A stretch of 64,000 bases of DNA from Branchiostoma floridae (Eukaryota; Chordata; Leptocardii; Amphioxiformes; Branchiostomatidae), in the NCBI RefSeq assembly GCF_000003815.2, contig NC_049985.1, forward strand, positions 1,579,410-1,643,409, given 5' to 3'. The stretch's first letter is position 1, and every line of letters starts with the position of its first letter. Of this stretch, positions 3,301 through 63,692 are shown one piece after another. The notes under the pieces were generated by a model. It was not told the origin of the DNA. It saw only the letters and a program-made list of their open reading frames with translations, and ran no database searches. Made by a program: the position numbers and the translations under genes.

Positions 3301-6260
3301 AGGAAGTAACAACGTAACATCGTTGGATAACATAGAATTGGTTCTAATAAGACTGGGTGCGGAACTCAAGAAAATATTGCCACCAATGCATACATATTTC
3401 AGAATCCAGTAGAGCTTTCATCCCACATAAACCACACATGTTGTGTACAGGAGACTATTTCTTTTACAGTGCCGCACCCTTACATCATGCAATACATTCA
3501 ATTTACTTCACAATTACTATGGCCAGCAATAACAGAGACTAATCAGTCGCTGATCTGAGCTTAATTACTGATGTCGGCCTGCTCAAAACCGGGCCGACAT
3601 ATTTTCTTCTTTTTTTCTTCTCGGTTCCTACAAAGACCAAAATAAACATCAGACCAACCTGTCTTCGGCAATTTTCCTTCGGTAGATTCTTTGTGACACT
3701 TCAGCACAGATCATTGGACACGAACTCCCCTAAGTCCTGGTCGTACCTGTAATACAACGAAAACAAATTTAACTTCACGCAGACAAACCTTATGCAAGCT
3801 TTCCACTATGGATTTTGATGTTAACAATGCATTGCTATCAAATTATCAAAAAATAAGAGCAGCTTCCATCTCTATTCCTGGTGCACACTAATATAGCAGA
3901 CAGAGAATCAGCCCCCAGAATGTGCGAACACGCCTGGACCTGTTTATTAGCGTCTGGGTCTAGACCAGACGACACATGCGCAGTGTGTAGATTGATATGC
4001 GTTTACGAGGTAATCAACTGTTAAAAGAGCCCGACGCTGCCTACCCAGACGTATTATGCAAGAAATAATTTTCATTCTTGTAAAAGCATACTATAGATAC
4101 ATGTATAACATTCTTCTCAAACGTGAGCTAGACATCTCAGACACCCCTTATTTTAAAACCATCCAACTCAATTTTTAATTATTGTAATTATTGCCACCGG
4201 TGCATAACGTTACATTTATCATAAGCTGTAAAGCTCGTACACAGATAAAGTAGACCTGTCATGTGCTATTATTCCTTTCTTTCCCCACAGTACCACGCCC
4301 TTACATCAAAAGCAGACATAGAATTACTTCGGCCAGCAATAACAGAAAGTAATCAGCCGCTGTTCTATAGATCTAGTGCTGATAACTGATATCGGCTTGC
4401 ACAAAGCCAGCCCGGCATATTTTTGTGTCTATTGATCCATAATTACATCTAGCGCCCAAACAAAATATAACAGACCAACCTGTTTTCAGCAATCTTCCTT
4501 CAGTAAGGTTCTTCGTGACAGTTCAGTACAGATCATCGGACACAAACTCTCCTATATCCTGGTTTAACCTGTAATACAACGAAGTCAAATTCAACTTTTA
4601 GGCAGACCAACCTTTACAATCTTTCTGTTGGGGATTGAATCTTAACAATCCAATACTATCAAACTATAAAGCAAAACAAGTCTTAGAGCAGTTTCATTCT
4701 CTGTACCCGATCCACACTAATGTAGGAGGCAGAGATACGGTCCCACGATGTGTGAGTGGAAAGAACACGCCTGGATCTGTTTATTAGCGTCTGTGTCTAG
4801 ACCAGACGTCACATGCGCATGCGCAGTTTATAGATTGTTATGTGTTTACGTGGTAATCAACTGTTAAAAGGACCCGACGCTGCCTCTCTTGAATTTTCTT
4901 GTCTATTGATCCATAATTACAGCAAGCTCCGAAACAAAGTATAACAGACCAACCTGTTTTCAGTAGTCTTCCTCCTGTGTGTCTCTTTGTGACAGTTCAG
5001 CACTGATCATCGGACGCAAACTCCTGGGCGTACCTGTAATCGAACAACGAAGTCAAATCTAACTTATAGGCAGACCTTTTGTGATCTTTCTCCTGTGGAT
5101 TTTAAACTGAAAAATGCAATGATAGATTATCAAAATCAAGTGCAGTTCCCTTCTCTGTACCTGATTCACACTAATATAGCAGACAGAGGTACGGTCCCCC
5201 CGATGTGCGAGTTGAAAAAACACGCCTGGATCTGTTTATTAGCGTTTGGGTTTACATCGGACGACACATGCGCAGTTTATAGATTGAAATGTGCTTACGT
5301 GGTAAACAACTGTTAAAAGGGCCCCACGCTGCCTCTCTTGAATTTTCTTGTCTATTGATCCATAATTACATCAAGCCCCCCCCCCCCCCCAAAAAAAACA
5401 GACCAACCGGTCTTCAGGAGTCTTCCTTCCGCACGTTTTTCGTGACAGCTCAGCAATGATCATCAGACACAAACTCCTGGGCGTACCTGTAACACGACGA
5501 AGTCAAATTCAACTCATAGCCAGACCAACCTTTTGTGATCATTCTCTTGTGGATTTTAATCTGAAAAATGCAATGATAGATTATCNNNNNNNNNNNNNNN
5601 NNNNNNNNNNNNNNNNNNNNNNNNNNNNNNNNNNNNNNNNNNNNNNNNNNNNNNNNNNNNNNNNNNNNNNNNNNNNNNNNNNNNNNNNNNNNNNNNNNNN
5701 NNNNNNNNNNNNNNNNNNNNNNNNNNNNNNNNNNNNNNNNNNNNNNNNNNNNNNNNNNNNNNNNNNNNNNNNNNNNNNNNNNNNNNNNNNNNNNNNNNNN
5801 NNGATAATTACAGCAAGCTCCCAAACAAAATAAAACCAACCAATTAAAGCAACCTGTCTTTAGTAGTCGTCTTTCCGAAAGTTTTTTCGTGACAGTTTAG
5901 CACTGATCATCAGACACAAACTCGTGCTCGTAGCTGTAACACAACGAAGTCAAATTCAACTTATAGGCAGACCAACCTTTTGCAAGCTTTCTCCGGTGGA
6001 TTTAATCTTAAGTTGAATTATAAAAGTTAATTATCAAGTTAAATTATAGAATTAACAACATCAGTTCCCTTCTCTGTACCTGTTTCACATAAAGCAGACA
6101 GAAGCACGATCTCCACAATGTGCGAGTGGAAAAACACGCCTGGATCTGTTTATTAGCGTTTAGTAGCGCAGTTTATGGATTGATATGTGTTTACGTGGTA
6201 AACAACTGTTAAAAGGACCCGACACTGGCTATCCAGACGTATTATGTAAGAAGTGTTTTG
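3300..6260 (-). repeat. Tandem exon-like cassette array upstream of receptor copy 1 (five units)
   Basis: Units of roughly 450-820 bp repeat in the same orientation. On the minus strand each has a TATA-like stretch (TCTATAAACTGCGCATG), a conserved block, then a pyrimidine-rich tract ending in TTACAG, followed by an 80-90 bp segment that usually ends CAG/GTTGGT. These acceptor/donor-like bounded segments are 3659-3746, 4480-4568, 4954-5033, 5409-5486 (donor side weakened) and 5854-5933. All contain a short frame ending F-(V/A)-S-(D/N)-D-x-(C/Y)-stop, with one 9-bp in-frame length difference. They may be alternative 5' exons of the receptor, or remains of an unknown short gene. An assembly gap interrupts the array. 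Confidence 0.6.
5586..5802. other. Assembly gap (217 N)
   Basis: A run of 217 N lies inside the cassette array, so the number and spacing of repeat units here are uncertain. Confidence 0.99.
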
Positions 6261-11179: not shown

Positions 11180-13260
11180 AACGCTACATCGTTGGATGAC
11201 GTAGACTAGTGTCGGTTCCGATAGAAAGACTTGATGGGGAACTCAAGAAAATATTGCCACCAAATTGGTATACATTTTTCAGAATGCAGTACAAATTTTA
11301 TCCCACATAAGCCACACCTGATGTGTACAGGAGACTATTACCTTCACAGTGCCGCACCCTTACATAATGTAATAGGTTTACTTTACTTCACAATTACTGT
11401 GGCCAGCGATAACAGAAAATAATCAGTCGCTGGTCTGAGCTTAATTACTTGTGTCGGCCTGCTCAAAACCGGGCCGACATATTTTCTTGTTTTATTTTTC
11501 TTCTCGGTTCCTACAAAGACCAAAATAAACAACAGACCAACCTGTCTTCGGCAATTTTCCTTCGGTAGATTCTTTGTGACACTTCAGCACAGATCATTGG
11601 ACACGAACTCCCCTAAGTCCTGGTCGTACCTGTAATACAACGAAAACAAATTTAACTTCACGCAGACAAACCTTATGCAAGCTTTCCACTATGGATTTTG
11701 ATGTTAACAATGCATTGCTATCAAATTATCAAAAAAATAAGAGCAGCTTCCATCTCTATTCCTGATGCACACTAATATAGCAGACAGAGAATCAGCCCCC
11801 AGAATGTGCAGACACGCCTGGACCTGTTTATTCGCGTCTGAGTCTAGACCAGACGACACATGCGCAGTGTGTAGATTGATATCTGTTTACGAGGTAATCA
11901 ACTGTTAAAAGAGCCCGACACTGCCTACCCTGACGTATTATGCAAGAAATAATTTTCATTCTTGTAAAAGCATACTATAGATACATGTATAACATTCTTC
12001 TCAAACGTGAGCTAGACATCTCAGACACCCCTTATTTTAAAACCATCCAACTCAATTTTGATTATTGTAATTATTGCCACCGGTGCGTAACGTTACATAT
12101 ATAATAAGCTGTAAAGCTGTGGTACCCAGATAAAGTACACCTATCATGTGCTATTATTCCTTTCTTTCCCCACAGTACCACGCCCTTACATGAAAAGCAG
12201 ACATAGAATTACTTCGGTCAGCAATAACAGAAAGTAATCAGCCGCTGTTCTATAGATCTCATGCTAATAACTGATGTCGGCTTGCACAAAGCCAGCTAGA
12301 CATATTTTCGTGTCTATTGATCCATAATTACAGCAAGCGCCCAAACAAAATATAACAGACAAACCTGTCTTCAGCCGTCTTCCTTCAGTAAGGTTCTTCG
12401 TGACAGTTCAGTACAGATCATCAGACACAAACTCTCCTATATCCTGGTCGAACCTGTAATACAACGAAGTCAAATTCAACTTTTAGGCAGACCAACCTTT
12501 ACAATCTTTCTGTTGGGGACTGAATCTTAACAATCCAATGCTATCAAATTATAAAGCAAAACAAGTCTTAAAGCAGTTTCATTCTCTGTACCTGATCCAC
12601 ACTAATGTATGAGGCAGAGATACGGTCCCCACGATGTGCGAGTTGAAAAAGCACGCCTGGATCTGTTTATTAGCGTCTGGGTCTACACCAGACGTCACAT
12701 GCACATGCGCAGTTTATAGATTGATATGTGTTTACGGGGTAATCAACTGTTAAAAGGACCCGACGCTGCCTCTCTTGAATTTTCTTGTCTATTGATCCAT
12801 AATTACAGCAAGCTCCGAAACAAAGTATAACAGACCAACCTGTCTTCAGTAGTCTTCCTCCTGTGTGTTTCTTCGTGACAGTTCAGCACTGATCATCGGA
12901 CACAAACTCCTGGGCGTACCTGTAACACAACGAAGTCAAATCTAACTTATAGGCAGACCTTTTGCGATCTTTCTCCTGTGGATTTTAAACTGAAAAATGC
13001 AATGATAGATTATCAAAAACAAGAGCAGTTCCCTTCTCTGTACCTGATCCACACTAATGTAGGAGATAGAGGTACGATCCCCACGATCCCCACAATTTGC
13101 GAGTGGAAAAGACACGCCTGGATCTGTTTATTAGTGTCTGGGTCTACATCGGACGACACATGCGCAGTTTATAGATTGGTATGTGCATACTTCATAGTAG
13201 TTACTGCAGTAAACAACTGTTAAAAGGGACCGACGCTACCTATCCAGACGTATCTACTAT
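11180..13260 (-). repeat. Tandem exon-like cassette array upstream of receptor copy 2 (three units)
   Basis: Paralogous to 3300-6260. Segments bounded by acceptor-like TTACAG and donor-like CAG/GTTGGT on the minus strand are 11542-11629, 12365-12453 and 12840-12919. Each keeps the short frame ending in F-V-S-D/N-D. The outermost counterpart (13925-14020) matches 6503-6610. Confidence 0.6.
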
Positions 13261-14600
13261 GTAAGTATTATGTAGTATTATGTAAGTGTTTTGCACTCCT
13301 AGTAAAAGCATACCTGTACAGTGGCGCTACATATGCATGTATGGCATTCTTCACAAAACATGGGCTAGCCATCTCAGACACCCCGATCTCGTGGAGATAC
13401 CTGATACGCCATACTTGATATGTTTGCTGGTACAAGATAGAGAGAAATGGTTTGGTTTGATTAGCTTCGACTAGAAATAACAAACTAATCTGTGGATTCT
13501 CTAATGTTAATAAGACCTTGTTGATTTGATTACATTTGTATATGGATGACTTCCGCGCGTGCATCAACTTTCGGCCGTTTCCACAAAAAAAAAAAAACAT
13601 TTTCAATCATACTGTTAATCGTACAAAGCAGTTTTAAAATAAGCAATACTAGTAAATGCAGAGTATTGCAAAACCAATTATCAGAACAAGTATACTAGTG
13701 TTGAAGAATATTCCAAGGTCAGAGAAGCTGTGAAAGAATAAAAATGAATAATCTATTATTTGGTATACTCTATCCTGTGTGTTCAGTCATATGTTCAGCA
13801 TTCTTGGTCACTTAAATTTCATAATGAAATCAACTCTGTTTTTGGTGATACCTTTTTTATTTGCACGCTAACACCAGTTTTTGGTTCCCAGAGGATGTCA
13901 TAGAACCAAATCCACATGGCCTAACTGATGTCGGTCTGCTCAAAGTGGCATGTTTTCTGTAGATTGTCTGTAACAAGCAGCACAAAAATAAAAAGACCGA
14001 CCGACCTTCACTTCAGACGTCTTTTCTCTGTAAATCTTCTTCACGATGAATCAGCTTTTATCGATTCTTGTCCACCGAAGATTTTGCCCCCTATCTGTCT
14101 CTTCTGGCTTGAGTAAAAACAAACGGAGTACGTTGTACCATGGGTTTTTCTTACGTGGGCGAACGGGAGCGCGCATGCGCCTCGCTATATTTACTACCGT
14201 CTTGGCTCCGAGCACACGTCACCAGGAGCATGCGCAGTATGTGGTATGCCTGCCTGGGAGACAGAAAGTTTGTAGATTGGCATCATCAATATTCGTTTGG
14301 CTACATTCGTTTGAAAGAGTAGAGAATTATCAGCAAGCGAAGATTAGAGAGACTGTGTGAATGAAATAAATTGCCTGCGCTTTAATCAACGTTTTGATGT
14401 GAATAGATGACGTTACGAATCTGAAATAGCACCTCACTGATGCACAAGATGTTACCAAGTTTGAACCAAAGTTGACGTAAACCTCGGTCAAATACATCGT
14501 AGGATGTACATACATTGGAGGGTGTGTCTGTAATAGCATATATATAGCAATATACCATGAATAGGAGGATGCCGTAGGAAGATGGATAATTTCACTTACG
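13261..14600. other. Intergenic, end of duplicated block
   Basis: No gene recognised. Homology with the copy-1 flank is clear to about 14040; beyond it the sequence is single copy apart from short GC-rich stretches such as GCGCATGCGC near 14170. Confidence 0.4.
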
Positions 14601-17900: not shown

Positions 17901-20900
17901 CTAGAGGAAGGAGTAAGACAAAACAGTCACCTACAGATATAATGTAGTTGTGACCCACTGAGTGCCTAGCCTGGGTACCATCCGGATAGTAGTTTGCTCC
18001 TATGTTCGCTTCTGCTATCCGTCTGGAGATGTGCGCATTCAAACCGTTTGGCGGTAACGTCAGTTAATGAGCGAATCTAGGAATAGGTTCTACAGCGCTT
18101 GTTCGATGACAACAGGCCTCCCACGAGCGGGCGGAGGGCTTGTCCAGCGTTGGAACGTCTGTTCGAACGAGCTCTTGAATCCATTCCATATTTCGCTCAT
18201 GTGTAGGGACCAATCAGCGCCTGCTTCCAAAATTTGGACGATTCCAGACGTTAAGATGGTCCGCGTTCCCAGACAGAAGCACAGAGAAGCGACTGTATAT
18301 AGTGTATAATGAATGTCAGAGCTAGAAGCGACTGTATATAGTATATAATGAACGCCAGAGCAAACTACTTTCCGGATGGTACCCAGGCTACTGAGTGCCT
18401 ACATGTTCACGTACATCGTGCCTGTTGTGAGCACCACTATAACCTAGTCTCCATCTGCAAAATGTTTCAGCTATATCAGCCATAAGTAGAAGTTGTAAAA
18501 TAGAGGAGACGCTACATGCATGTAGCTACTTGATTGACTTACACAATTAGGCAAGCATATGATGATGATGACCTGCCAAAACCACAATCAAAAAAATTAA
18601 AAACTGTTTTACGTCGACTGATGCTAAACATTCAGGTATGCCAAATAGCAATTATGCAGGCAACTGGATATGATTTTGGACAGTCAAACATTTCAGGTAA
18701 CATCCGTTATCTTTCTCCAGTGACATTTAAGGTATCTTGCTATCTGCAGTCTGACCATTTCCAAAATCATTGTTGTTGGGTGTCCATCCCTCTAAGAAGT
18801 AAGATGATGGTATCCAATTGCTATTTGGTGATCTTATGACATGGATGTATAACCTTAATCAACATAAAAGACAGGGGTCTAGCCAGCATCCGTTTTTCCG
18901 TGAATTGACGGAAATTTGCTGCGTGTGACGGAAATTTTTTTAAACCAATCCGTTAACCTTGACGAACAAAAATTAGCTACAGGCGGCTTGGGGACGCTGT
19001 CCACGGTCGGAAAGCCAAACACTGTTTGTTTTGCTATTGTTATGATTGTTGACGTAGCCTTTCGCATACGATAATCTCATTAAAAACCTGTTTTTCAAGG
19101 TCTCAGTTCCGTCTTTCTAACTTAATTTTCGCGGTTTTCGCAACAATGGGAATTGGCTGACGGAAAACAATTTCGAGCTGGCTAGAGCCGTGGTAAAAGA
19201 GTACATGTAGCTGCAACAAACTAAGGATACATATAACATCCTTGCTCCTAAGAACATAACAACCAACGTCAGGCACTAGTGCTACAGAATAGATGTTGGA
19301 GTAGCACTGAGACATATGGGAGACTCTGGTGAAGTCAAACTCCACAAAATAACCTTCCCCCAACAAAGGTATGACCCATGCAGCAGATGAGCAATGGTTA
19401 CAGTGCAAGGCGGCATGATGGGGGTTAAAGTACCTATGGGCCTGTAGCTTACAGGTCAGTGTCGCCTCTTTCCTTGCTACAGACATGTGGGAAGAGGTAC
19501 AGTCGTGAACAGTCTTATCAGATCGGCACATCACCGGTTAACTCTTTGTACTGTTAAAGTTAAAGTTGCCCATGAATCTGTACATGTAACAATGCTTAGG
19601 GGTGGCACCCATCTCCATTTCTGTAGCCCTTGGGCCACACATTTGTGCAAGCCACTACAGCTGGTGGCTAGTCCACTGGTAGTGATGTGTGTATTACTCC
19701 CATACTCTTCCTAGAAGAGAAAGCTGCATGTACCCCCTTCAAAACAGCCATACTTTCTTCAATAAACCATGTAGTTTGGGTTCTATTGCACCTGTGTTTA
19801 CCTGGAAACCAAGGTACTACTACCCTCCTGTGTTGATAGAAAAAAGAGAACAAGACAGTGTTTTACAAATAATTGTCTCCTTTAAACCAAACCACAATCA
19901 GCAACCTTTTATCAAGCTTAGAATGAGGTATGTCTGTGACTTGATGTAGACAGTCGTTTCTACCTCATTTTTCTTACAACTTTATTCATTTGAAGAAAAT
20001 TGCACACATGCAAGTGTAAAGGGCATTTCTGTTTGCATTGGAGTTGATGATGATAATTAACATAATATCATTAGATATTTATACATAATATCAATACAAA
20101 CTATGACTTACCCATTGGGAATGTTCCATTAACAAGCTTAGAATGAAGAATATCTGTGACCCAAAGTAGACAGTTCAAACTTGTTTCTACCTTATTTCCT
20201 ATAGATTTTATATGAAAATCACACACATGACATAAGTGTAAAGGGCATGACAGATTTTTCGTTTGCCACATATATATTGGTGTTGATGATGTTGGAAAAC
20301 AAAATATCATTTAATATCTATGACTAATAATGTTACACAATGACTTACCCATCCTCCGCCGTGCAAGGGTCGGATGTTGAACATCTCCACCTCTTCGTAA
20401 TTCTCGTACTCTGTGAACAGCACTACTGCAGTACGGCCGTTGGGCGCCACGTCCGTAACCATCGCGGGATAGAACTGCACAGAGCAGAACAGACAGGAAA
20501 TTAGCCTGGGTACCATACAGATAGCAGTTCACTTCGACTTGTATTATACACTTTATACAGTCGCTTCTCGCTCCAACTTTTATGATACACTATATACAGT
20601 CACTTCTCAAATTTTGGACGAGGGCACTGATTGGTCCACACACGAGTGAATTAAAGAATGGGTTTAAGCGCTCACTTGAAGTCGAACAGGCGTTCCAACA
20701 AACGAAAATATGATTATGATTTTTTTTCCAAAACCCAAGAAACAACAGTCTACCTTCCCATCCTCCCAGTATCTGGCCAGGCAGTGGTCGTTTCTTCTCC
20801 ACTTCCTCTGGCCTCCGTCCCCCCCATGTCTGGGCTGGTTGGTACGGTCCGCTCCCTGCCTCTGCCCCCCACCTCTGTCCTCGTAGCTCCCTTGTCTGTT

Positions 20901-23900
20901 GTTCATCCTCCTGCCGTCGTTACGGTCCTGATGCTGCGGCCTCGGATTGTTCCTGTCGCCACGGTGATGATAACCGTCTCGCTGGTTTTCCTGGAAGTCC
21001 TGATGTTGCTGCTTCGGATTATTCCTGTCACCACGGTGATGATAACCATCCCGCTGGTTTTCCTGGAAGTGTTCGTTCTGTCCCCGGAATTCCGGCCTCC
21101 TGGGATTTCCCCCCTCCTGTTGTCTGTTTGGTTCGTTCCGCCGGTGGTCTCGGTAAGAATCATTATTCTGCCCGCGGAACTCCTGATTCTCCGTTTTCCC
21201 ACCCCGCTGTTGTTCCCTCGCGTCGCGGTTTCCGGGCCTGTTGCCCTGCTCCCCACCTCCTCTCCTCGCGTCCCTGTAGTTGTCATGCCGACCGTGAGGT
21301 CCGTTACTCCTGGAATCTTCCCTCTGTCTACCAAACTCATCAAAGTTCTGCCTGTTGTCCTGTCTGTTGTCACCTTTCCTGCCCCGACCGACATCCTCCT
21401 GGTACCCTCTGTTGTAGTTACTGTCGGTGCCGCCTGTACCCCTCCCCCGGCCCCCACCCCCTCGGTCGTGTCTGCCCCCCCTACCACGGCCCCCTCGACT
21501 CCCCCTGCCTCCATCGTACGGTCTGGAGTCGTTGAAGTGCTGCCCCCCCTCCCTGTTCTGATGGTCATACTGCTGCCTGCCACCTGGCTGGTTCCTCTGG
21601 CCCTGGTGGGACAATAAGGGTAAAGTAAGACTAAGAAATAATCATTCTGCATAGGGCTGGGTACCGGTACAGAAAATTCAGGTCCAGGTCCGGTTCAGGT
21701 CCAAAGGATCAGGTCCAGGTCCGGACCTGAACCTGGACCTGATGCAGTATGACTCATACCAATGGTCCATTTCACTACAAAGAAATCTGTTTGGTGAAGT
21801 ATTAGACTTACACTGACGTTTTAAAATCCTACAACGCTAACTGCACCTGTACGATTGACGGTAAAACTTGGTAGAAATTACTATAAACTCTACTCTACTT
21901 CGCTCTTGTTATTTTCTTCCACCTGCAGGCGTCAAAACGTGTGAATGCCTGATAAAGTAATCTGTTAATTTTCTAATCGGTCCAACATCCGGTCCACCTA
22001 ATTTTTTCAGGTCCGGTTTTTCTGGACCGGTCCAATAAGAAAAACCGGTTTTGTACCTGTACGCTGTACCAATACCCAGCCCTAATTCTGCATAATAGGT
22101 AACCTGCCATTAGGCATTACACAACAGTTTTCTAGAGTAAGTACAAGGTCCTTGAGGGGAAGAGGAAACGGGGACATCCTAAAACTACATGGACATGCGC
22201 TGTGGTTAAAGACCTAGCGGCCATTGGGATCCCCTGGGATGCTGGGTAACCCCCAATAAGGGTTACCCCCAAATAGCCCCCCCCTCAACATGGGGGGGAG
22301 GGGGAGATTTCAGTTCCCAGGTTAGGGCAGGCAGGCCCTCTGCCTGGCATGGAAAGACTCAACAGAGGGCCAGGCAGGGCATTCCATTGTAGAAGTTAAG
22401 TTCTATGAAATATTGAAAACTTGTGTTTGTGCGAGCGTATATGGTCTGGTATTTAAAGTGGTGGTTCCCCCGGCTGCACCCTTATCACAGACTTACATGT
22501 ATGTCCCGCATGGGATGCAGAGGATAAGTAAGTAAGTAAGTAATTTCCCTTGACACTTACCCTGAAGTCATTGTTGTTCCTCTGCCCGTAGAACTGAGAG
22601 TCTCCCACCTGCGGCCAGCCCTGCCCATCGTAGTGGTTTTCCCTCCCCCCCTGGGGCTTGTTGTACCTGGGGGGCTGGCTGGTCTGGGCACCGGGGCTGG
22701 GCTTCGAGTCTGGGGACAAGTATAAGGGAAAGGAATATATCTTTAGTCTTCACCATTTAAGAAAGCAAGCAACTCCCATGCATTAGAATATGGTAGCTGA
22801 ATAAATGTAATTTTACCTCTTTGTTTGTTCTTAGTTAACCTTAAGGCTTAACGCTTTTTTGTGTCATAGCCCCCAGTTATGTGTGCTGCACAATACAAGC
22901 AAGCGCTGCTTTTGGTCTTTGTGTTGTGGTGAGGTGAGGTTGTGGCAGTCCAAATAAAGTTAAAAATAGAACTTGTCAGAAGATATTTACATCTACTTGC
23001 AATGTCAGCAAAACCTGATTCTGTAATGATAGTCTCTGTTTACATTGAAAAAACATTATAAATACATTTTTGCCAACCCACCATCTATTTTCAAGTTATC
23101 AATCTTGGACTCCAGGATGAAGTCGAACAGCGTGGCGGGTCCTGATGGTCTGGTACTCACATCCTCCTCCTCCTCATCACCCCTCCCTCGCCTCCCACGG
23201 CCTCTTCCTGTGAAGAAACAGAGAAAGAGCTTTATCCAATCTGTCTCAGTAGTAAACTGTCTTCTGCTTAGAAACAGCACAATTACAGTACTCGCTTTGC
23301 TTCAGGAAGTAATTTCAAGTTAGACAAACCTAGGACAAACTCATTGAAAAGTACATTTAGGTATAGAGCAACATCATTGTGAAACAGGCAACACAGGTGA
23401 ATTTTCTATTGTCCATCCCTGAAGTTACGGAGAAAGTGTGTAAAAAAAAAAACAGCCAAAAATCAGTGGTAGGATAGCCAAACCAGGCGACACCAGCTGA
23501 ACATCTAGCAATATACTTCAAGGGCTGCCACTGTCCTCTCTCTGTCCCATGTCATGTACACTGTCCTGTCATCAGTGTGACAATGATGCATGCAGGATCA
23601 TGATGACTTTAAGTGAAAGTTCTCACCTCTGCCCCCGTCCTCCCTCTGTCCCCTGTCCCCTGCCTGTCACCAGTATGAGTATGACAATGACACATGACAC
23701 ATTCTGAGTGACAGTTCTCACCTCTGCCCCTGTCCTCCCTCTGTCCCCTGTGCCCTGCCTGTCACCAGTGTGACAATGACACATGACACATTCTGAGTGA
23801 CAGTTCTCACCTCTGCCCCTGTCCTCCCTCTGTCCCCTGTGTCCCCTGTCCGGCCTGTCACGCCCCTGTCCCTGTCCTTGTCCTTGTCTGGTCACCAGTG

Positions 23901-26900
23901 TGTTGATGGCCTCCTGTAAAAGATGAAACTTTACTGCCTTTTTGCAAGTCTCCAAATGACTAGCTACACAGGCTATGGGGAGAATACTTTGTCATGGGAG
24001 CTTAACTACATAGGTTTGGATTACGGCTGTGTATTTTAATACCCGTACCTGCACTGTACCTGCAAAAAAGGTACAGGTCCGGACCTAAACATTTGTGTAC
24101 CTGTACCTGTACCTAAACTAACTAAAGCACTATTGGACATCACTTTTTAATACTACAAATAGGTAAAACCTGAATCAACAATCATAATTGTGATCAAAAT
24201 GCAGTTGAAAATTTAGGAAACTTCATTTTAAAGCGCAACCATCCATATCCCGTAGGAACGTCTGGTGGAGGCTACCATTCTTTGCCACCAATGGACCATA
24301 GCAACACAAATAAACATACATTATGGACATACCAAATTTTAAAAAATCCCCACCTGTACGTCTCCGCTGTTCTGCCTGAGACTGGCCACAGAGTCCTGTC
24401 TGCTGAACCCCATCTCCACAAGCTTCTGTACTGACTTCTCCTCGACCTGGGAAGACTGGGAGAACACAACACAATTTATCTATCTATTTATTGAAATTTA
24501 CCAACTTTGTGGAAGGATTAACATTACAGGTGACTATCACCTTTTCAAGATTGTAAGTTTGAGAGAGTGTAAAGTTTATCCTATCACACAGGGAAAGACC
24601 ACTACGATCTTTTTTTTCATGTGGAGGTTTTGATGTGAGGCTCTCAGCCTCTCTCCTGAAAAAAAGGGATAGCTCGTTTTCAACATACTTGAGAGGACAT
24701 CCATGCTCTAAGCTTGGTACTCGTTTTCACCCGAGCCTAGCAAGAAAATAGATGTAAAATGCCTTTCCTAAAGATACGATATTGGGACCTACTAGAGATT
24801 TGAAAGTAGAACCTTTAGCCAGCAACCTTGACCACAAGATCACCTGGCCACCTGTTCACCATGCTACAAAAATCAACTTAAGCTCACTAAAATCTAATCT
24901 TTTACTTTTCACTGTTTCTTTTCTAATGTCTTTCATTTCATATCTATTTATTGTGCATTTGGTATATAAGTTACATTTTGTTTCCAATTATCACTGTATA
25001 TAACATTTATGGTTTTTATTATTTACTTGAATGTGTATTTTGTTTGTTTTGGGGAGACAACCTGCAGAGGTGGCATGTCACCTGTTTTGTCTCCCCTCCA
25101 TTTTATATGGAAAATGCAATAAATAAATAAATAATGTCGAAGTAACTCACCTCGTTGGACAGTTCCCTGTAGACCCCCTGAGGCCTGTTCTCGCCCCTCC
25201 TGTCCGCCGGCCCTCCCCACTTCTTCTCGGGGACGGCGGTCGCGGGCAGACTGCCCGTCCCCCCGAACGTCTTCGTGCCCTCCTTGGATTTGCTGACCTC
25301 GGCGATCACGGCCTTCCTCTGCTCCGAGAACTCGTCGGCTTCTTCTGACTCTGTCTCCTTCTTGGGCAGACTTTTCTTGTTCCTTAAGTCCTTGGTGGCC
25401 ACCGCACCACCGGACACTCTCTGTGGGGTAAGAAGAAAACAGTCAAGAATTTTCAAACCCAGAGTGTCTTAAAGCCCTCTTACAAATCAAGAATTTAGCT
25501 TTGGCGACATGTCGGCGAGCTCTAGTTGGGCAATTTCAGCTGAAGAACGGCCGACGTCTTAGCAACTACGTGGGCTTCTGACGATTTTTAGCAGCTTGGC
25601 CGATGTTCGGGCATCACTGAAAGCTGCGCTTAAATTCAGTGAGGCCTCGGTGACAAATTCTGAACCTTTTATGAGATTTCAGATTGGTCTATAGTAAAAC
25701 TCCCGTTAATATTATTATTTTTAGGTCCTTAAGTCCTTGATAGCCACTACACCAATGGACACCCTCTGTGGTGTCAGAACAAAACAGTCAGGATTCTTGG
25801 ATAACAAGATTCTTTGCACCCAAGTGTTCACCCATCTGTCACCTTCCTCAGGGTAACAATCCTGACTGGATCACATTGTACTGCAGCCATAGGTGTCACT
25901 ACTTACAGAAGCTGTACTGCTTTCTGTATCTGATGTTATATCTTAGTACACTTGGTACAAGAATCTGATCATTAACAGTTAATCAGCAGTTAAGGTAATG
26001 AGTGTCTCAAACCTGTCCGAACGGTACGAACGGTGGGGCACCACCCTCCACCTTCACGTTGGCTCGAGAGTGATGCGCCAGTTTCTGTGGAAGAACACAG
26101 TCACATCACAACAGGTTACAGGTCAAGCTGGATAAGCCCCCCCCCTTCCCCCTCCAAAAAAAAAACTGAATGATTCACAAGCAATTTTTATTACACAACA
26201 CTCCTTCCCAGTTTTCGTGCCAGGCATGTTTCCTTGTAGTCATGAGATACACATGCCCCAGTAACCCCCTAGCCTGCAAGCTTCATGCCCCCAGCACTTC
26301 CCCTTGATAATTTGGAATGAAATGCTAGAGGGAACACTTCTCTAACTTTATTACATTGTCCAACTTGGAATTTACAGGAAAAAATATTGCTTTAGTTGTT
26401 GCTATACAAATGAATGTATAGCCTTATCACAAAGACAATGAATGAAGAATACAATATCCATGGCAGTAGTGATATTCATGTAATAAATAAGAAAACTCAC
26501 TCTTTGAATGTCCCATCTGGAGAAGAGTTTTTCCACCTGCCCCCCTAAAACCTTCACATTGGATCCTTCCAACATCAGGAACCCATTACTGATGGCAATG
26601 GAACCGGTCAGCTTCACTTTTGTGCCAGGAGGGGTGGACAGGCTGTGGAGAAAAAAAGGAGAATTTAGAAGATGTCAGAAGTTTTGGAAATGTTTCTTTT
26701 AGGAATCTAAAATATCTGACAAATATAGCTATGGCAAACAATAAAATCATCATGTTGAAATAAAATAAATGATGATGATAAGATAAAAATAACAATAAAA
26801 GCAATGAAATGTTATGCTATAATGCTATCAAACTGTTCGTAATAAAATTCACAGGAAGAAGAAGACCGATGAAGATGACAGGACAGGGGGTTGTTTGGAA

Positions 26901-29900
26901 AAGAAACAAGACTGGCAATAAAAATGTATTATTGCCATGACGACGATTGGGGGTACAACAATACAGCTCAAATCAGAAATAGACTGGAACTTCCCTGTCG
27001 CACTATCCCTGGCACAATATACGAGCCCACCTGTAACATAAAACTACAGCCAGCAGAAATGTACTATCCCTGGTACAGCACAATGGTCTGCCAGTAACCC
27101 AAACCTACAGCTGAGCACTACAGTGTGTACTGGAGATTAAAAAATAAGGAAGAACCAACTGTTTCCCGCACTTCCGTCCTTGAATGACTTTCTTGCATCT
27201 AACCAACATGGCTGTCCTACTTCGTAATATTCCAGTCCTTGGATAGTGTAATAGGCCTTGAACAATTATGTTTGGCTCTGAATATGATAACCATTTGGAT
27301 GCCATCGTTCAAGATCATGACCTCTATATGAAGTATTTCCTGTCTGCCTGTGGCGTATGGCTTGAACAAGCTCTAGAAAAGAAAATGTATCCTTCATAAC
27401 ATAACATAACAACCAAGACAACGTGATCCATTGTGCAGAGTTTCCCTGTCTAGTTTCAAAGGACAAATTCCTCCAGGGAGCAAGGATCAGCAAGTGTGAC
27501 CTACAGTCCACCATTGCATACCAGAGATACATCTGGAACAGATTTGGGGGGGGGGGGAGGGCTTGAATACCCAGCATACTGCATTCCTGTGGAAAAATTC
27601 CTGTGCAATTCCTAGAATTTTTGCAGACTGAATGCAATATATACCACTTGACGACTCCCCTGAGGCGTCGTCAAAAAATACAGAAGCAAGGGCACAACAA
27701 CAGAGCCTACAAGGGATTCGCACCCAGGACCTTTGCATACTGGGTGGAATACCTTATGTACAATGCCACAAAAAGAAAAGAAAAGAAAGACCCCCACACC
27801 TGAGTTGCTGCACCTGTGGGACCTCCAACCCGATGCAGGTGGTGTGGCCGTCAGTCATCTGCACCTTCAACATCCAAGGGGCGTGGCCAGACTTTACATT
27901 CCGAGTTATATACCTTTCATACAATAAAAAAACACACCTGAGTTGCTGCACCTGTGCGACCTCCAGCCCGATGCAGGTGGTGTGGCCGTCAGTCATCTGC
28001 ACCTTCAGCATCCGGGGGGCGTGGCCAGACTTTACATTCCGAGTCGAATACCTTTCATACAATACAACAATTAAACTAACCCACCTGAGTTGCTGCACCT
28101 GTGTGAAATGTAGGACCTTTACATTCCAAGTTGAATAGCTTACAATACAACAAACAGAAGAAAACCCACCTGAGTTGCTGCACCTGTGCCACCTCCAGCC
28201 CGATGCAGGTGTGGCCGTCAGTCATCTGCACCTTAAGCAACAGGGGGCGTGGCCAGACTTTACATTCCGAGTTATATACCTTTCATACAATACAACAATA
28301 AAACTAACACACCTGAGTTGCTGCACTTGTGCGACCTCCAGCCCGATGCAGGTGGTGTGGCCGTCAGTCATCTGCACCTTCAGCATCCGGGGGGCGTGGC
28401 CGGACTCCTCGTTAGCCTTGGGCGCCGACACGTTCCGAACCTTCGTCACTTGGAGGACACATGGACCAATCAGCTGGAAGGTAAGTTTGATGGGGATTAT
28501 TACCATATTTGGTCGTTAACATTCCAGGAAATATTAAGAAATGAAGACCTTGTCTTAATTCTCTCTTTAAATTGGAAAAAAAAAGAATGCACTAGTACAG
28601 TAAGAAGAGAAAACAGAAGCAATGCACTGTAACATTTGTAATGTGCACCTTACGCAGGGAAGCAGATCCTCTGGCAGGTAGAAACTTTAGATCGACCAGA
28701 GATACTTCTTGGTAATTTCCGTCATCAAGATGTCTCAGAACACAATGTACCCATTTAACTTTAAAAGTCCATATTGCGGAATGGGTAAATCAACAGCATC
28801 CACGCTTCATAACTCAATTCACTTGCACCCCCATTCAATTTCTTTTGTAGAAAAAAACCTCGGCAGTTAATCATAATAAAGTCACATTTGGGGTGATCAG
28901 AAAGCCAAGATCTTCCCTGCCCGCCCTCGGTAGCCAGGCAGTGGTCGACACACACACAGACAACCACCCAGGAGAACCCTGGGATAGCAGCCGCGAGCAG
29001 TCAACCACAACACACAGAATGCGCCACCTGGCCGGAAGGGGGGCTCTGCGAATGGATTGACTGTTACATCATGTCACCCATGTAATAGTATCCTAGTAAC
29101 TTAACTTCGAGGTAGAACAAGACTGGAAAAGGAAGATTTCGCGGTATTTTATAAATCCCACAAATGAAAGATGATTGTAGTCCTCTGTACTTCACCAATA
29201 CATTGGCGACACCACTGTGAACATTAGTAGAAGTACACAGTGGTCTATTGATCTTTTATGTCACTGCTCACTGCTCACTGTTGTACATCTCCACTATCCA
29301 TATTTTGTCTTATTGATTTTGCTGTAATTGATGTGATCAGAAGGGATACAGGACAAGAGGCAGACAGCATTGATTGGAAATGCGATGCTGGAAAGGGACC
29401 TCTGATCAGCCACAGTGGTTTGGGTCAGATTGGCTAGGAAGGCACCTGACATAAGTCATAAGTCAAGTCATACAGCCAAGACTGACCAACTGGCTGGGGG
29501 CTAATTATGATAAGAGCTTGCCTGAAGTTTTAGAACTAATTATTTTTGCTGATTTGGTGTGAAAAGAATTGTTTTGTCTCTTTTTTCAGATAGAGGGAGA
29601 ACTCACTTCACTGCTGCCTCCCCTGCTGATATCTTCAGGCAGAAACTTCTCTCCTATAGACCTCAGGTCCTCCTGGAATGAAAATAATGGCTTAAGTTGT
29701 CACTTCAGTTAATACTAGTACTGGGAAAAACAAGCTTTTTATTAAAAAAATCTCCTGCATCCGGAAGGATGAATAAAATATTATAAGCCCTTACACTGTT
29801 ACATGTGCCAAATACCCGACCGTTACTCAAGCAACTGGTCATGGATATGGTTTGGAAACAGTTTCAGACGTTTCAGATAGAATCTACTAACTTCCGTCAG

Positions 29901-31477
29901 TGACAAATATAGTGAACATGATGACAAAATCTTAAGCACAGGACTACAAGTTGGAAGAACTACCAGGGAAGTACAATCCCTTACAATTAATAAGTTAAGT
30001 AACCATACAAAGTAGCAGCTGTAGACTTACGTCCAGAGCCTTCCTCACGATGCCATCTATAGTGGTGATGTTGTTCTCCTGTTTCAGCGCTGCAATCCCC
30101 TCTGCTGACAGGTGCCTGCAACAGATACATTTCTTCAGTGAATAGTCATCTTTTATGGGGGCAGCCTTTCTTTGTTTCATCAGGTTAGTATGCCACAAAT
30201 ATTTTGCATAAGCTGTCTGTACATATGTAAATACTTTACATTTTGGGACCACATCTGAACTGTGAGCAGCGACACCTGTCCTGCAGTACAATGTGAACCA
30301 GTCAAATTGCCCTGAAGAAGGTGACAGATGGTCACCAAAACGCTGGTGAGAATAAAGCAATGGTTGTGTAAAAAGAGTCTCTTTATTCTACATAATCAGA
30401 CACACTTTTTTTTATAAAAATCTTCCATAACTCCATACTTAGATATCATTTGTGTCGAGCACGCAGCCCTCTGCCAGGTACTAGGGAACTGTAGTAGGCA
30501 AGTAGCGTAATATTCTAATCTCCAAGCACATCCTATGGTGCCGTAAGAAAGTATCAAAGCTGGCCAAGGAGTACAGCTGGCCAAAGGCAGTCATCAGCCA
30601 CTCCGGTAGTCTAACACACTCCTAGGCCAGCTTCACTCCTCTGGCAGCTTTTGATCTTATTCTACCGTAGGATCTGCTTGGAGATTACTGATTAGTAAAA
30701 TTCCAGGTTTGGGCCAAAGTGGTATCAGGACATTTAATCACCTTGACAGTTTGGACCCTAGCTAATATGAACATGTTGGCACCAGGCCTAGGATAGTTAA
30801 GCTTTAGGGTTAACCCCCCTGGACCTGGTAGGGTCAATATAAAACCGTCCAAGGGGAAAAACTATCCAGGTTGCCAAAACATCAGGGAATTCCTCTCTAG
30901 ATCGATCACAAGTCTACATGGTTTATGAATTTACCTGAATTGAACTGAAAATAGTTCCTTTTAGGGGTACATTTTTCCTGATTAATGAAGGTAATGTCAA
31001 ACTCCTCGCGTTTCAAAATCAACATATAATTTCTGGTTTCGTACGAAGGGAGCAAATATCACACAATGTGTGATATGACAAACTGACAAAGCATAAATTT
31101 TAGAGATAGGGGCAACAACTCTTATAGTCCACGTGTTGTTTGCATAATAGAATTATTGGTAATTATTGGTTATTCATTTTACAGGGTTGACATTTTTGGT
31201 TTACAAAAAAAAAGGAAATATCTCATTATCAAAATCCTTCAGCAGATAATAATTTTTCGGTTTCGAAGGAGACGGTGTGGTGGGGGGAGGGGGGCGTCCA
31301 TTCGTAGTGGCTCACCACAATAAGGATGACGTAACGACTGATATAAAGAGCACAGAATTGTTGTACGGATACAATACTTTCTGTTACTCCTAACTACTGT
31401 GTTATATAGGGTGAAGGACAGGAGAAACAGGCGACATACCAGCCTTGCTTCCACAAAACTGCGGCTTCGGCAGCCAT
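17643..31477 (-). CDS. TDRD3: Tudor domain-containing protein 3, 14 exons, 845 aa
   Basis: Coding exons joined 5'-3': 31477-31440, 30115-30031, 29672-29607, 28473-28313, 26642-26501, 26084-26013, 25420-25151, 24446-24354, 23913-23811, 23207-23082, 22709-22561, 21602-20754, 20474-20349, 17900-17643. All introns are GT-AG, phases agree, and the sum is 2538 nt with a single terminal stop. Domains: RMI1-like N-terminal region and OB-fold (about 1-190, GPCVLQV and FVPFGQ motifs), UBA (279-318, EMGFS), [11 protein letters not shown] motif (exon 10), a long Arg/Gly-rich region (436-700), Tudor (about 700-758, RYWEDGKFY and YENYEEVE) and a C-terminal YQPP tail resembling the vertebrate end. In vertebrates TDRD3 reads asymmetric dimethylarginine on histones and RNA polymerase II, partners TOP3B through the OB-fold, and binds FMRP. 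The protein is longer than human TDRD3, mainly because of exon 12. Partial exon copies lie beside exons 4, 7 and 9. Confidence 0.95.
17967..18390. mobile_element. MULE-like MITE with perfect 9-bp target duplication
   Basis: The 33-bp inverted ends beginning TAGCCTGGGTACCATCCGGA match at 32 of 33 positions. The element is flanked by CTGAGTGCC on both sides (17958-17966 and 18391-18399). A 9-bp duplication is typical of Mutator-like elements. No transposase. Lies in TDRD3 intron 13. Confidence 0.9.
18872..19192. mobile_element. hAT-like MITE
   Basis: Inverted ends CAGGGGTCTAGCCAGC and GCTGGCTAGAGCCGTG, flanked by ATAAAAGA and GTAAAAGA (7 of 8 identical), as expected for a hAT insertion. Lies in TDRD3 intron 13. 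Confidence 0.85.
19912..20325. repeat. Intronic tandem duplication (about 210-bp unit, two copies)
   Basis: 19912-20095 and 20126-20325 share AAGCTTAGAATGA, TCTGTGAC, GTAGACAG, AAGTGTAAAGGGCAT and GTTGATGATG blocks in the same order. The copy boundary includes GACTTACCCAT, which also forms the donor of TDRD3 exon 13. Confidence 0.7.
20349..20474 (-). CDS. TDRD3: TDRD3 exon 13 (second half of Tudor domain)
   Basis: The exon is 42 codons, phase 0 at both ends, with acceptor CTGTGCAG and donor TGG/GTAAGT. It encodes the Tudor strands FYPAMVTDV...[21 protein letters not shown]. The usual YGNYEEV loop reads YENYEEV here. Confidence 0.95.
20506..20702. mobile_element. Degenerate relative of the 17967-18390 element
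   Basis: Starts AGCCTGGGTACCAT and continues with the same interior (ACAGTCGCTTCTC, AAATTTTGGACGA, ATTGGTCCAC). The opposite end is lost near TDRD3 exon 12. Confidence 0.65.
20754..21602 (-). CDS. TDRD3: TDRD3 exon 12 (RGG-rich region and start of Tudor)
   Basis: The exon is 283 codons with acceptor TTGTCCCACCAG/GGC and donor AAG/GTAGAC. It encodes an Arg/Gly/Asn/Gln-rich disordered stretch ([14 protein letters not shown]) with a tandem [18 protein letters not shown] repeat, ending in the first Tudor strands ([16 protein letters not shown]). RGG boxes normally bind RNA or become methylated. The long plus-strand frame over this exon is its antisense shadow. Confidence 0.95.
21652..22084. mobile_element. 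hAT-type MITE with perfect 8-bp target duplication
   Basis: Ends TAGGGCTGGGTACC and ATACCCAGCCCTA, flanked by ATTCTGCA on both sides (21644-21651, 22085-22092). The interior is rich in CAGGTCCAGGTCCGG-type repeats. A fragment of the same family is near 24035-24115. Lies in TDRD3 intron 11. Confidence 0.93.
22561..22709 (-). CDS. TDRD3: TDRD3 exon 11
   Basis: 149 nt, acceptor CTTGTCCCCAG, donor AGG/GTAAGT. Encodes [19 protein letters not shown] and a low-complexity Gln/Asn/Gly segment. The first codon is completed by the single G ending exon 10. Confidence 0.9.
23082..23207 (-). CDS. TDRD3: TDRD3 exon 10
   Basis: 126 nt, acceptor TTCTTCACAG. The donor is G/GTGGGT, chosen because it restores frame with exon 11. 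Encodes [15 protein letters not shown], then [20 protein letters not shown], a motif shared with vertebrate TDRD3. Confidence 0.9.
23620..23810 (-). repeat. Two extra copies of the 3' edge of TDRD3 exon 9
   Basis: About 90-bp units repeat the end of exon 9 (GACAGAGGGAGGACAGG), its GTGAGAACTG donor and following intron. The copies end near 23625 and 23718. No acceptor is seen, so they look like decoy donors. Confidence 0.8.
23811..23913 (-). CDS. TDRD3: TDRD3 exon 9 (end of UBA)
   Basis: 103 nt, acceptor TCTTTTACAG, donor G/GTGAGA. Encodes [10 protein letters not shown], the last UBA helix, then a [10 protein letters not shown]-type linker. Confidence 0.92.
24035..24115. repeat. Fragment of the 21652 MITE family
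   Basis: A GGTACAGGTCCGGACC core and GTACCTGTACC repeats match the 21652-22084 interior. The ends are not recognisable. Confidence 0.45.
24354..24446 (-). CDS. TDRD3: TDRD3 exon 8 (UBA core)
   Basis: 31 codons, phase 0, acceptor CTTCCCAG, donor CAG/GTGGGG. Encodes [20 protein letters not shown] and the second helix. The MGFS loop is the usual ubiquitin-contacting motif of UBA domains. Confidence 0.95.
24717..24850. repeat. Dispersed SINE-like repeat, second copy
   Basis: Related to 15303-15435 through shared GGTACTC, AAAATGCCTTTCC and ACCTTTAGCC blocks. Confidence 0.4.
25151..25420 (-). CDS. TDRD3: TDRD3 exon 7
   Basis: 90 codons, acceptor TTACCCCACAG, donor GAG/GTGAGT. Encodes [19 protein letters not shown] and TKTFGG, then GVYREL, all conserved around the linker between OB-fold and UBA in vertebrate TDRD3. 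Confidence 0.95.
25722..25790 (-). repeat. Degenerate copy of the 5' edge of TDRD3 exon 7
   Basis: About 65 bp matching 25385-25446 (acceptor region plus the first 12 codons) with scattered substitutions, in the next upstream intron. Confidence 0.75.
26013..26084 (-). CDS. TDRD3: TDRD3 exon 6
   Basis: 24 codons: [20 protein letters not shown] then PFGQ, a highly conserved TDRD3 signature after the OB-fold. Acceptor TTCCACAG, donor CAG/GTTTGA. Confidence 0.95.
26501..26642 (-). CDS. TDRD3: TDRD3 exon 5 (OB-fold, second part)
   Basis: 142 nt encoding [20 protein letters not shown], then [14 protein letters not shown]. Acceptor CTCCACAG, donor AGA/GTGAGT. The first codon is shared with exon 4 (AG plus C gives Ser). 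Confidence 0.95.
26643..27790. other. TDRD3 intron 4, unremarkable part
   Basis: AT-rich intron with an 11-G run near 27547. No other feature seen before the repeat array beginning at 27790. Confidence 0.45.
27790..28312 (-). repeat. Tandem copies of the 3' half of TDRD3 exon 4 with donor site
   Basis: Three units of about 140 bp (27794-27930, 27936-28070, 28170-28305) and one short unit (28082-28127). Each repeats the last 80-100 bp of exon 4 ([18 protein letters not shown]), its CTCAG/GTG donor and about 55 bp of intron. No acceptors, so they cannot be whole exons. Confidence 0.9.
28313..28473 (-). CDS. TDRD3: TDRD3 exon 4 (OB-fold, first part)
   Basis: 161 nt encoding [20 protein letters not shown], then [13 protein letters not shown]. 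Acceptor TTACCTTCCAG, donor CAG/GTGTGT. This is the OB-fold used by vertebrate TDRD3 to hold TOP3B. Confidence 0.95.
29607..29672 (-). CDS. TDRD3: TDRD3 exon 3
   Basis: 22 codons: [20 protein letters not shown], then SE. Acceptor CATTCCAG, donor GAA/GTGAGT. Matches the conserved DLR-IG-KFLP segment. Confidence 0.93.
30031..30115 (-). CDS. TDRD3: TDRD3 exon 2
   Basis: 85 nt: [20 protein letters not shown], then GIVRKALD. Acceptor TGTTGCAG, donor GAC/GTAAGT. With exon 1 it gives GWHLSAEGI, like the vertebrate GWYLSDEGI. Confidence 0.94.
30225..30390 (+). mobile_element. Retroelement 3'-tail repeat, copy A
   Basis: Shares with 40645-40812 the order ACAATGTGAACCAGTCA, CCCTGAAGAAGG, a GGTGAC/GTCACC hairpin, CACCAAAACG, AATAAAG and TTGTGTAAAA. 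The arrangement resembles 3' ends of retroelements. No reverse transcriptase frame nearby. Confidence 0.5.
30516..30687. mobile_element. MITE with TAATCTCCAAGC ends, copy 1
   Basis: Inverted ends TAATCTCCAAGCACATCCTA and TAGGATCTGCTTGGAGATTA. Same family as 35063-35490 and 35730-36013. Lies in TDRD3 intron 1. Confidence 0.8.
31440..31477 (-). CDS. TDRD3: TDRD3 exon 1 (start codon)
   Basis: 38 coding nt from [15 protein letters not shown] plus two bases. Donor CTG/GTATGT. The start lies in AAAGATGGCTGCC, a good initiation context that also resembles a YY1 site, as in many vertebrate housekeeping genes whose first codons overlap YY1 motifs. Confidence 0.92.
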
Positions 31478-31922
31478 CTTTGCCGGATCCTACCGCTTTG
31501 TAACAAGCGCTCTCATTGGCTCAACCAATCCTGGTACTGAAGTCCGAAATTTTAATAAAGTCTTGTTATACCAAGTTGTTTTCTGTTTCCTATATACGTA
31601 GTGGTTGCTTATGGTATATGTGTATGTTGTAAAGCTTTCATACAGTTTGAATTGTGGTGAAAATATGATTTTTATGAATGAGATGTAAGGAGCGCTCTGG
31701 TTGGTCAAGGTGGAAGTGCCTAAAGACGAAACAAAAATGGCGGACAACGATCGGACGTGGAAAGTCTCAATTAACTTTTTGGGCCTTGTTGACTTCAAGG
31801 ACGGCAATTTCCGACGTTAAACACCGCTGGACGGATACCTGAAGCCTTGCAGGTTGCGAGGGACTGACGGGAGCCGGCGGTTTTTGAATTCGCGTGGGAC
31901 TTTTTAGCTCGAGTTTAGCAAG
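31478..31922. promoter_or_regulatory. Bidirectional promoter between TDRD3 and DIAPH
   Basis: Only 445 bp separate the two divergent start codons, so both promoters and 5' UTRs must overlap or abut. Visible elements are opposed CCAAT boxes (ATTGG 31515-31519, CCAAT 31525-31529), another TTGGTCA near 31699 and AAAATGGCGGAC at 31733-31744 (YY1-like). No clear TATA box close to either start codon. Confidence 0.8.
31737..31820 (+). promoter_or_regulatory. Candidate upstream ORF of DIAPH (27 codons)
   Basis: ATG in AAAATGGCGG opens MADNDRTWKVSINFLGLVDF and closes at TAA, 102 bp before the DIAPH start. It matters only if transcription starts upstream of 31737; the ATG may instead belong to a YY1 site at the transcription start. 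Confidence 0.4.
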
Positions 31923-63477
<31,555 letters not shown>

Positions 63478-63656
63478 GTACGGGGCTGATTTGTTATGAT
63501 TTACTAAGTAATACGTAATTACTTTACTTTACTTTGGACGAGCTACCACTGGAACCAAACTTGAAAGCTGTCTCCATACCACCCTATCTTTCATCAGGGA
63601 CCGATTTGGATTTGATTTACATGTAATTTATTAGGCCTAAAATTATTGTCATATCT

Positions 63657-63692
63657 CAGCGAGCCTGAGCAGTTCTGCGTCATGGTGAGGGC
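63657..63692 (+). repeat. Copy of exon 18 3' edge with donor
   Basis: AGCGAGCCTGAGCAGTTCTG then CGTCATG/GTGAGG repeats the end of exon 18 (SEPEQFCV-). No acceptor. Confidence 0.85.

What the first reader, a model, noticed from the sequence alone, without database searches (positions are those of the whole stretch)
23620..63692. Exon-edge tandem duplications at nine exons in two adjacent genes
Partial copies of exon edges occur beside TDRD3 exons 4, 7, 9 and DIAPH exons 2, 4, 9, 11, 16, 18. Each copy spans an exon end and flanking intron, usually with an intact acceptor or donor, but never a whole exon with both sites. The density (about nine of 32 exons) is far more than expected from scattered duplications. 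Such decoys could compete for the spliceosome, shift exon boundaries or seed new exons. Ascertainment matters: duplications wholly inside introns also occur here and are harder to notice.
Basis: partly seen in the sequence, partly recalled or inferred. Interest (0 to 1): 0.8.

Follow-up and report, generated by a model that had tools for sequence, protein, structure and literature searches.

The report
Amphioxus repeats copying exon edges
Beside many exons of two neighbouring genes, in what looks like an amphioxus genome, sit partial copies of the exon edge with its splice signal; this is a known lancelet oddity called "mirages", seen here in new genes and apparently favouring exon edges.

Summary
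I modelled TDRD3 (minus strand, exons 2-13) and DIAPH (plus strand, exons 2-25, the last seven beyond the window) in open frames. All nine named exons carry partial edge copies: TDRD3 4, 7, 9; DIAPH 2, 4, 9, 11, 16, 18. DIAPH 18 is copied at both edges, and exons 20 and 25 outside the window are also hit. No repeat found spans a whole exon with both sites.

The kind is already described: "mirages", tandem duplications of exon-intron boundaries in amphioxus genes (PMC3087553, PMC3902484; passages).

New here is a test. Of 40 non-exonic families in 14 gene regions, 20 touch an edge; 4.05 are expected by random placement, 9.9 by a conservative shift null. Measures that count edges, not families, show no significant excess. 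"Far more than expected" is therefore only partly supported; in the two genes 13 of 25 families touch no edge.

Most likely these are local slippage or unequal-exchange products that splicing ignores. All 30 decoys examined would bring a premature stop. Two two-copy cases could be haplotype-merge artefacts.

The parts
20349..30115 (-). TDRD3 gene, modelled exons 2-13 (30031-30115, 29607-29672, 28313-28473, 26501-26642, 26013-26084, 25151-25420, 24354-24446, 23811-23913, 23082-23207, 22561-22709, 20754-21602, 20349-20474)
   Evidence: open frame of 747 aa; Pfam RMI1_N_C, UBA, SMN_Tudor
40846..63477 (+). DIAPH gene, exons 2-18 in the window; exons 19-25 continue to coordinate 68805 (locus L004)
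   Evidence: open frame of 1030 aa over exons 2-25; Pfam Drf_GBD, Drf_FH3, FH2, Drf_DAD; diaphanous homolog 1 chains in the PDB, best E 1.4e-166
27776..28406 (-). TDRD3 exon 4 donor mirage: four decoy donors near 27800, 27938, 28085, 28170; real donor at 28313
25373..25798 (-). TDRD3 exon 7 acceptor mirage: 25373-25453 (real) and 25718-25798 (decoy), 80% identical
23525..23844 (-). TDRD3 exon 9 donor mirage: 89-bp unit, decoy donors near 23722 and 23627
40951..41123 (+). DIAPH exon 2 donor mirage: 40951-41025 (real) and 41049-41123 (decoy), 97% identical
   Evidence: two-copy, could be a haplotype-merge artefact
51290..51532 (+). DIAPH exon 4 donor mirage: 51290-51381 (real) and 51441-51532 (decoy), 95% identical
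   Evidence: two-copy, could be a haplotype-merge artefact
54620..55453 (+). DIAPH exon 9 acceptor mirage: seven decoy acceptors each with 15-47 bp of exon start, then the real acceptor (exon 55407-55517)
   Evidence: a 411-bp query from this array matched only this place in the genome
56709..56917 (+). DIAPH exon 11 donor mirage: 56709-56766 (real) and 56860-56917 (decoy), 86% identical; the alignment ends two bases into the intron
60064..60570 (+). DIAPH exon 16 donor mirage: 99-bp unit, two clear decoys (60193, 60292) and degenerate copies
62605..63393 (+). DIAPH exon 18 acceptor mirage: seven decoy acceptors upstream of exon 63281-63477; AG plus the first nine exon bases unchanged in all eight copies
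63448..63691 (+). DIAPH exon 18 donor mirage: 63448-63484 (real) and 63655-63691 (decoy), 86% identical

Best explanation
These are amphioxus 'mirages': local, mostly tandem duplications of roughly 40-180 bp that include an exon-intron junction, half of them amplified to 3-8 copies. Slippage or end-joining makes the first copy and unequal exchange amplifies it (inferred). The exon-attached copy stays the functional edge because it alone has a partner splice site at exon distance. The others lie in the intron as decoys with AG or GT kept and are normally ignored under exon definition (inferred, with published RT-PCR on globin mirage genes). Duplications of a complete exon with both sites were not found; selection against extra exons is one possible reason, the need for a longer unit another. 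Exon edges seem to be hit more often than other places in genes; whether by biased formation or biased survival is open.
For: Copies at 12 edges of 11 exons in two genes, all partial. Six of the 12 edges have three or more copies (TDRD3 4, 9; DIAPH 9, 16, 18 acceptor, 20); four of the six two-copy edges are 14-20% diverged. Independent sample: 7 of 67 exons, in 5 of 14 loci (12 myosin, 2 chaperonin). Enrichment by family: 20 of 40 against 4.05 or 9.9 (P 0.0007); without two-copy repeats of >=93% identity 15 of 35 against 3.54. 0 of 30 decoys keep the frame. Literature: like structures in amphioxus globins and PGBD5, with Adh3 and TnC cited, normal splicing suggested, and length difference between two globin haplotypes (PMC3087553 and PMC3902484, passages). 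Genome size and 18 contigs of 18.6-35.3 Mb fit the 19-chromosome B. floridae assembly (PMC7269912, passages).
Against: Species identity is inferred, not shown. No RNA and no second assembly could be read here. Edges covered by repeats are not significantly more than expected from how much of the genes the repeats cover (12 against 9.3; 8 against 5.0, P 0.09; 15 of 178 against 17 of 298 random positions). Two chaperonin loci had no repeats at all, and one myosin locus gives four of the eight independent edge families. A globin search meant as a positive control showed no repeated hits. The published assembly was Sanger shotgun with merged haplotypes, so copy numbers are uncertain.
Confidence: 0.82

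Rival explanations
1. Assembly artefact: the two haplotypes of one animal were joined at alignable exon edges, leaving both alleles of the edge in tandem.
For: The published B. floridae assembly merged two separately assembled haplotypes (PMC7269912, passage). DIAPH 2 and 4 are two-copy at 97% and 95% identity.
Against: Two alleles cannot give three to eight copies (6 of 12 edges) and hardly the 14-20% divergence of four two-copy cases. The excess of edge families stays without two-copy repeats of >=93% identity (15 of 35 against 3.54). Re-sequencing confirmed the lancelet PGBD5 repeats (PMC3902484, passage).
Confidence: 0.07
2. About the excess only: duplications are random, but copies of conserved exon sequence stay recognisable longer (detection bias).
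For: The exonic copy is constrained. Measures counting edges show no significant excess. Older families show little excess by the shift null (8 of 26 against 5.2, P 0.1).
Against: The excess is strongest among families of >=90% identity: 12 of 14 against 4.7 or 1.7. In the best pair per edge, intron parts are about as alike as exon parts (57 of 701 against 49 of 661 mismatches), though long arrays weigh most there and some intron parts are only 2-7 bp.
Confidence: 0.25
3. The decoy sites are maintained and used, as poison (stop-bearing) alternative edges or as decoys that slow splicing.
For: 54 of 55 decoys at 15 edges keep AG or GT against 46.3 expected from flank identity; random control positions 76 of 88 against 78.1. 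By column, 1 of 30 splice-dinucleotide columns varies against 4.9 expected, P 0.027. All eight DIAPH exon 18 copies keep AG and the next nine bases.
Against: Copies in an array are not independent, and a decoy had to resemble the edge to be listed. Published RT-PCR on globin mirage genes suggests normal splicing (PMC3087553, passage). The stop for all 30 decoys is also what intron sequence gives by chance.
Confidence: 0.1
4. Incipient new exons or mutually exclusive exons.
For: Published intron-gain model from mirages (PMC3087553, passage). One DIAPH exon 18 decoy near 62964 carries about 113 bp of the 197-bp exon.
Against: No repeat family contains a whole exon with both sites; 0 of 30 decoys keep an open frame when used in place of the real site. 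Use of a decoy as a separate extra exon was not tested.
Confidence: 0.04

Closest known systems
Amphioxus mirages (boundary-spanning minisatellites: globins BflGb6 and BflGb9, PGBD5; Adh3 and TnC as cited there)
   Same: Tandem partial copies of an exon-intron junction at either edge, decoy AG or GT often kept, gene frame intact.
   Different: New genes (TDRD3, DIAPH, several myosins). Some copies are spaced, not head to tail. Polymorphism and splicing were not tested here.
Partial exons in introns of amphioxus VCBP3 (PMC2632668)
   Same: Complete or partial exon copies, some with canonical splice sites, in introns of the same gene (passage).
   Different: VCBP3 is said to have complete exon copies too; none found here.
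Tandem exon duplication / mutually exclusive exons
   Same: Exon sequence duplicated inside a gene.
   Different: Whole exons with both sites are required; none found here.

Membership tests
Amphioxus mirage | tandem repeat unit spans an exon-intron boundary | tested here: met
   12 edges in TDRD3 and DIAPH
Amphioxus mirage | the authentic exon remains in an intact reading frame | tested here: met
   747-aa and 1030-aa models without stops
Amphioxus mirage | unit length near the published range (10-72 bp Adh3, 150-160 bp globins) | tested here: met
   nearest decoy 74-207 bp from the real edge in 11 of 12 cases, 345 bp in one
Amphioxus mirage | cephalochordate genome | tested here: inconclusive
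Amphioxus mirage | length polymorphism between haplotypes or somatic cells | not testable with these tools
   one assembly only
Amphioxus mirage | normal splicing despite decoys | not testable with these tools
   no RNA data held; 0 of 30 decoys would keep the frame
Tandem exon duplication | whole exon with acceptor and donor duplicated | tested here: not met
   none among 32 families, by ungapped segments
Transposable element copies | copies dispersed in the genome | tested here: not met
   a query from the DIAPH exon 9 array matched only its own place; the only array tested

The most novel reading that the evidence does not exclude
In amphioxus, young local duplications form, or survive, several times more often across exon edges than elsewhere in genes, and the resulting decoy splice sites are held intact by selection, acting as standing decoys or poison sites and as a continuing source of new exon edges and introns.
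Probability: 0.1. Interest if true: 0.8.

Novelty: new member of a known kind. Interest (0 to 1): 0.4.

Why it matters
In the papers I saw, mirages are reported gene by gene. Here they appear in two more genes at high density and in 5 of 14 further loci, with a measured excess of repeat families at exon edges. If the excess holds genome-wide, lancelets are a natural system to watch how splice sites are duplicated, ignored or recruited, which bears on how introns and exon boundaries arise.

Tried and rejected
Self-BLAST of the whole window missed short-offset pairs such as DIAPH exon 2; replaced by a per-offset search. Counting exon edges covered by any copy gave no significant excess (12 against 9.3; 8 against 5.0, P 0.09), and comparing edges with random positions gave 15 of 178 against 17 of 298. 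I keep these as results against a strong excess, while noting that they count decoy copies as places where a real edge could lie. Age as the sole cause of the excess looks insufficient for repeats of >=90% identity. A codon-usage exon finder on 17 random 10-kb windows gave 8 of 60 non-exonic families at a predicted edge (6 of 23 of >=90% identity); these exons are unconfirmed, so they are left out of the main test. L006 was fetched with them but left out of these window counts because it adjoins the window. Families lying wholly inside exons (in the two genes: 20925-21070 and 59278-59454) and families outside the gene spans were dropped before the counts. Of 142 myosin matches the 53 in the 12 fetched loci were used; of 60 chaperonin matches the 14 in the two fetched loci. 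Their exon edges were placed automatically with splice scores trained on TDRD3 and DIAPH, some with weak scores. A globin search meant to find a known mirage as a positive control gave 12 matches with no repeated hits and was not decisive. Look-ups of the Adh3 paper failed: by a DOI I recalled wrongly, by its PMC number; I have not seen that paper.
Full report
Setting. The window lies in a 513.4 Mb genome of 431 contigs; the 18 numbered contigs whose lengths were shown are 18.6-35.3 Mb. This fits the published B. floridae assembly with 19 chromosomal scaffolds (PMC7269912, passages); the species itself is inferred. I built gene models from open frames and splice sites. TDRD3 runs on the minus strand, exons 2-13, 30115 to 20349. 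DIAPH runs on the plus strand, exons 2-25, 40846 to 68805, the last seven exons in locus L004. The translations carry the expected domains and DIAPH matches diaphanous homolog 1 structures. First exons and the end of TDRD3 were not modelled.

Observation. A self-alignment by offset (20-1000 bp, ungapped score >=22; two shuffles reached 18 and 20) found 32 families in 20001-69200. Two more DIAPH acceptors (exons 20, 25) are hit beyond the window. None of the 32 families spans a whole exon with both sites; a copy broken by indels could escape an ungapped search. Thirty decoys were listed for these 12 edges and keep AG or GT (listing required the copy to reach past the edge). Used in place of the real site, each of the 30 would bring a premature stop.

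Copy number and age. Six of the 12 edges have three or more copies: TDRD3 exons 4 and 9, DIAPH exons 9 (eight), 16, 18 acceptor (eight) and 20. The six two-copy edges are TDRD3 7 (80% identical), DIAPH 2 (97%), 4 (95%), 11 (86%), 18 donor (86%) and 25 (86%). In the best pair per edge, exon parts differ at 49 of 661 and intron parts at 57 of 701 positions. Long arrays weigh most in that sum and some intron parts are only 2-7 bp, so it speaks mainly for the arrays.

Is it more than chance? In the two gene spans there are 25 non-exonic families, 12 at an edge and 13 not. Shifting the exon set around the gene gives 9.3 edges expected against 12 seen (not significant) and 6.5 families expected against 12 seen, with P 0.012 for DIAPH and 0.15 for TDRD3. 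That null lets any copy of an array meet a real edge, although only one copy can be the original, so it is conservative. Placing one segment of the unit length at random gives 2.76 expected. As genes not chosen for the feature I took 12 myosin loci (53 exons) and two chaperonin loci (14 exons), with exon edges placed automatically. Seven of 67 exons, in 5 of 14 loci, carry edge copies; the chaperonin loci have no repeats. In the myosin loci 8 of 15 families touch an edge: 1.29 expected by random placement, 3.5 by the shift null, P 0.004; counted as edges, 8 against 5.0, P 0.09. One locus, L031, gives four of the eight families; without it 4 of 11 against 0.92, P 0.009. Together 20 of 40 families: 4.05 expected or 9.9, P 0.0007. 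Among repeats of >=90% identity 12 of 14 touch an edge (1.7 or 4.7 expected), among older ones 8 of 26 (2.4 or 5.2 expected). Against this, edges compared with random positions give 15 of 178 against 17 of 298. I conclude that edges are favoured as places of duplication, by a factor of roughly two to five if families are counted, and not that most local repeats lie at edges. In 17 random 10-kb windows there are 64 families (3.8 per 10 kb), against 6.2 per 10 kb in the first 60 kb of this window; 8 of 60 non-exonic ones touch an unconfirmed predicted edge.

Artefact? The published assembly was made from Sanger reads with two haplotypes assembled apart and merged, which could leave both alleles in tandem. 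Two alleles cannot make three to eight copies, and hardly copies 14-20% apart. Without two-copy repeats of >=93% identity the excess stays (15 of 35 against 3.54). DIAPH exons 2 and 4 remain open to this doubt, and copy numbers in long arrays are uncertain.

Are decoys maintained? At 15 edges, 54 of 55 decoys keep the splice dinucleotide against 46.3 expected from flank identity; random control positions keep 76 of 88 against 78.1. Counted by column, because copies are related, 1 of 30 columns varies against 4.9 expected (P 0.027). The same dinucleotides elsewhere in the repeats vary in 17 of 47 cases against 1 of 15 at the edge. In DIAPH exon 18 all eight copies keep AG and the first nine exon bases. 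This is a hint only; decoys had to resemble the edge to be listed.

Known or new? Boundary-spanning tandem duplications in amphioxus genes are published as mirages: globin genes BflGb6 and BflGb9, with Adh3 cited, with six against three units in two haplotypes of BflGb6, somatic instability cited for Adh3, RT-PCR suggesting normal splicing, and a proposed route to new introns (PMC3087553, passages); PGBD5, with Adh and TnC cited (PMC3902484, passages); partial or complete exons with splice sites in VCBP3 introns (PMC2632668, passages). I saw no test of edge enrichment in the listings. The library lacks most subscription papers, and I did not see the Adh3 paper.

Mechanism. Shown here: partial, mostly tandem copies at both kinds of edge, an intact gene frame, and no copy of a whole exon found. 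Inferred: slippage or end-joining makes the first copy, unequal exchange amplifies it, and exon definition picks the one copy with a partner site. Open: why edges are favoured, and whether any decoy is used.

Noticed in passing
56171-56647 and 66226-67025 (the second in L004): Two DIAPH introns have AT-AC ends with ATATCCTTT donors and CCTTAAC near the acceptor, the look of U12-type (minor spliceosome) introns (motif recalled).
   Followed up: partly
L031 (G000:C10:21154500-21159300): A myosin gene has edge repeats at four of its six modelled edges, one with 21 decoy acceptors in a roughly 50-bp array.
   Followed up: partly
20925-21070: A 72-bp tandem repeat inside the RG-rich TDRD3 exon 12 adds an in-frame 24-residue repeat.
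   Followed up: no
1122-1283 and 10276-10437; 3372-6233 and 11249-14042: The first 14 kb holds two similar stretches: the same 72-bp repeat in both, and tandem units of about 470 bp in both. The second 72-bp repeat lies in a 901-aa frame that looks by eye like a leucine-rich-repeat/Ig protein.
   Followed up: no
20349-68805: TDRD3 and DIAPH lie next to each other and point apart; human TDRD3 and DIAPH3 are also neighbours on 13q21 (recalled), so the linkage may be old.
   Followed up: no
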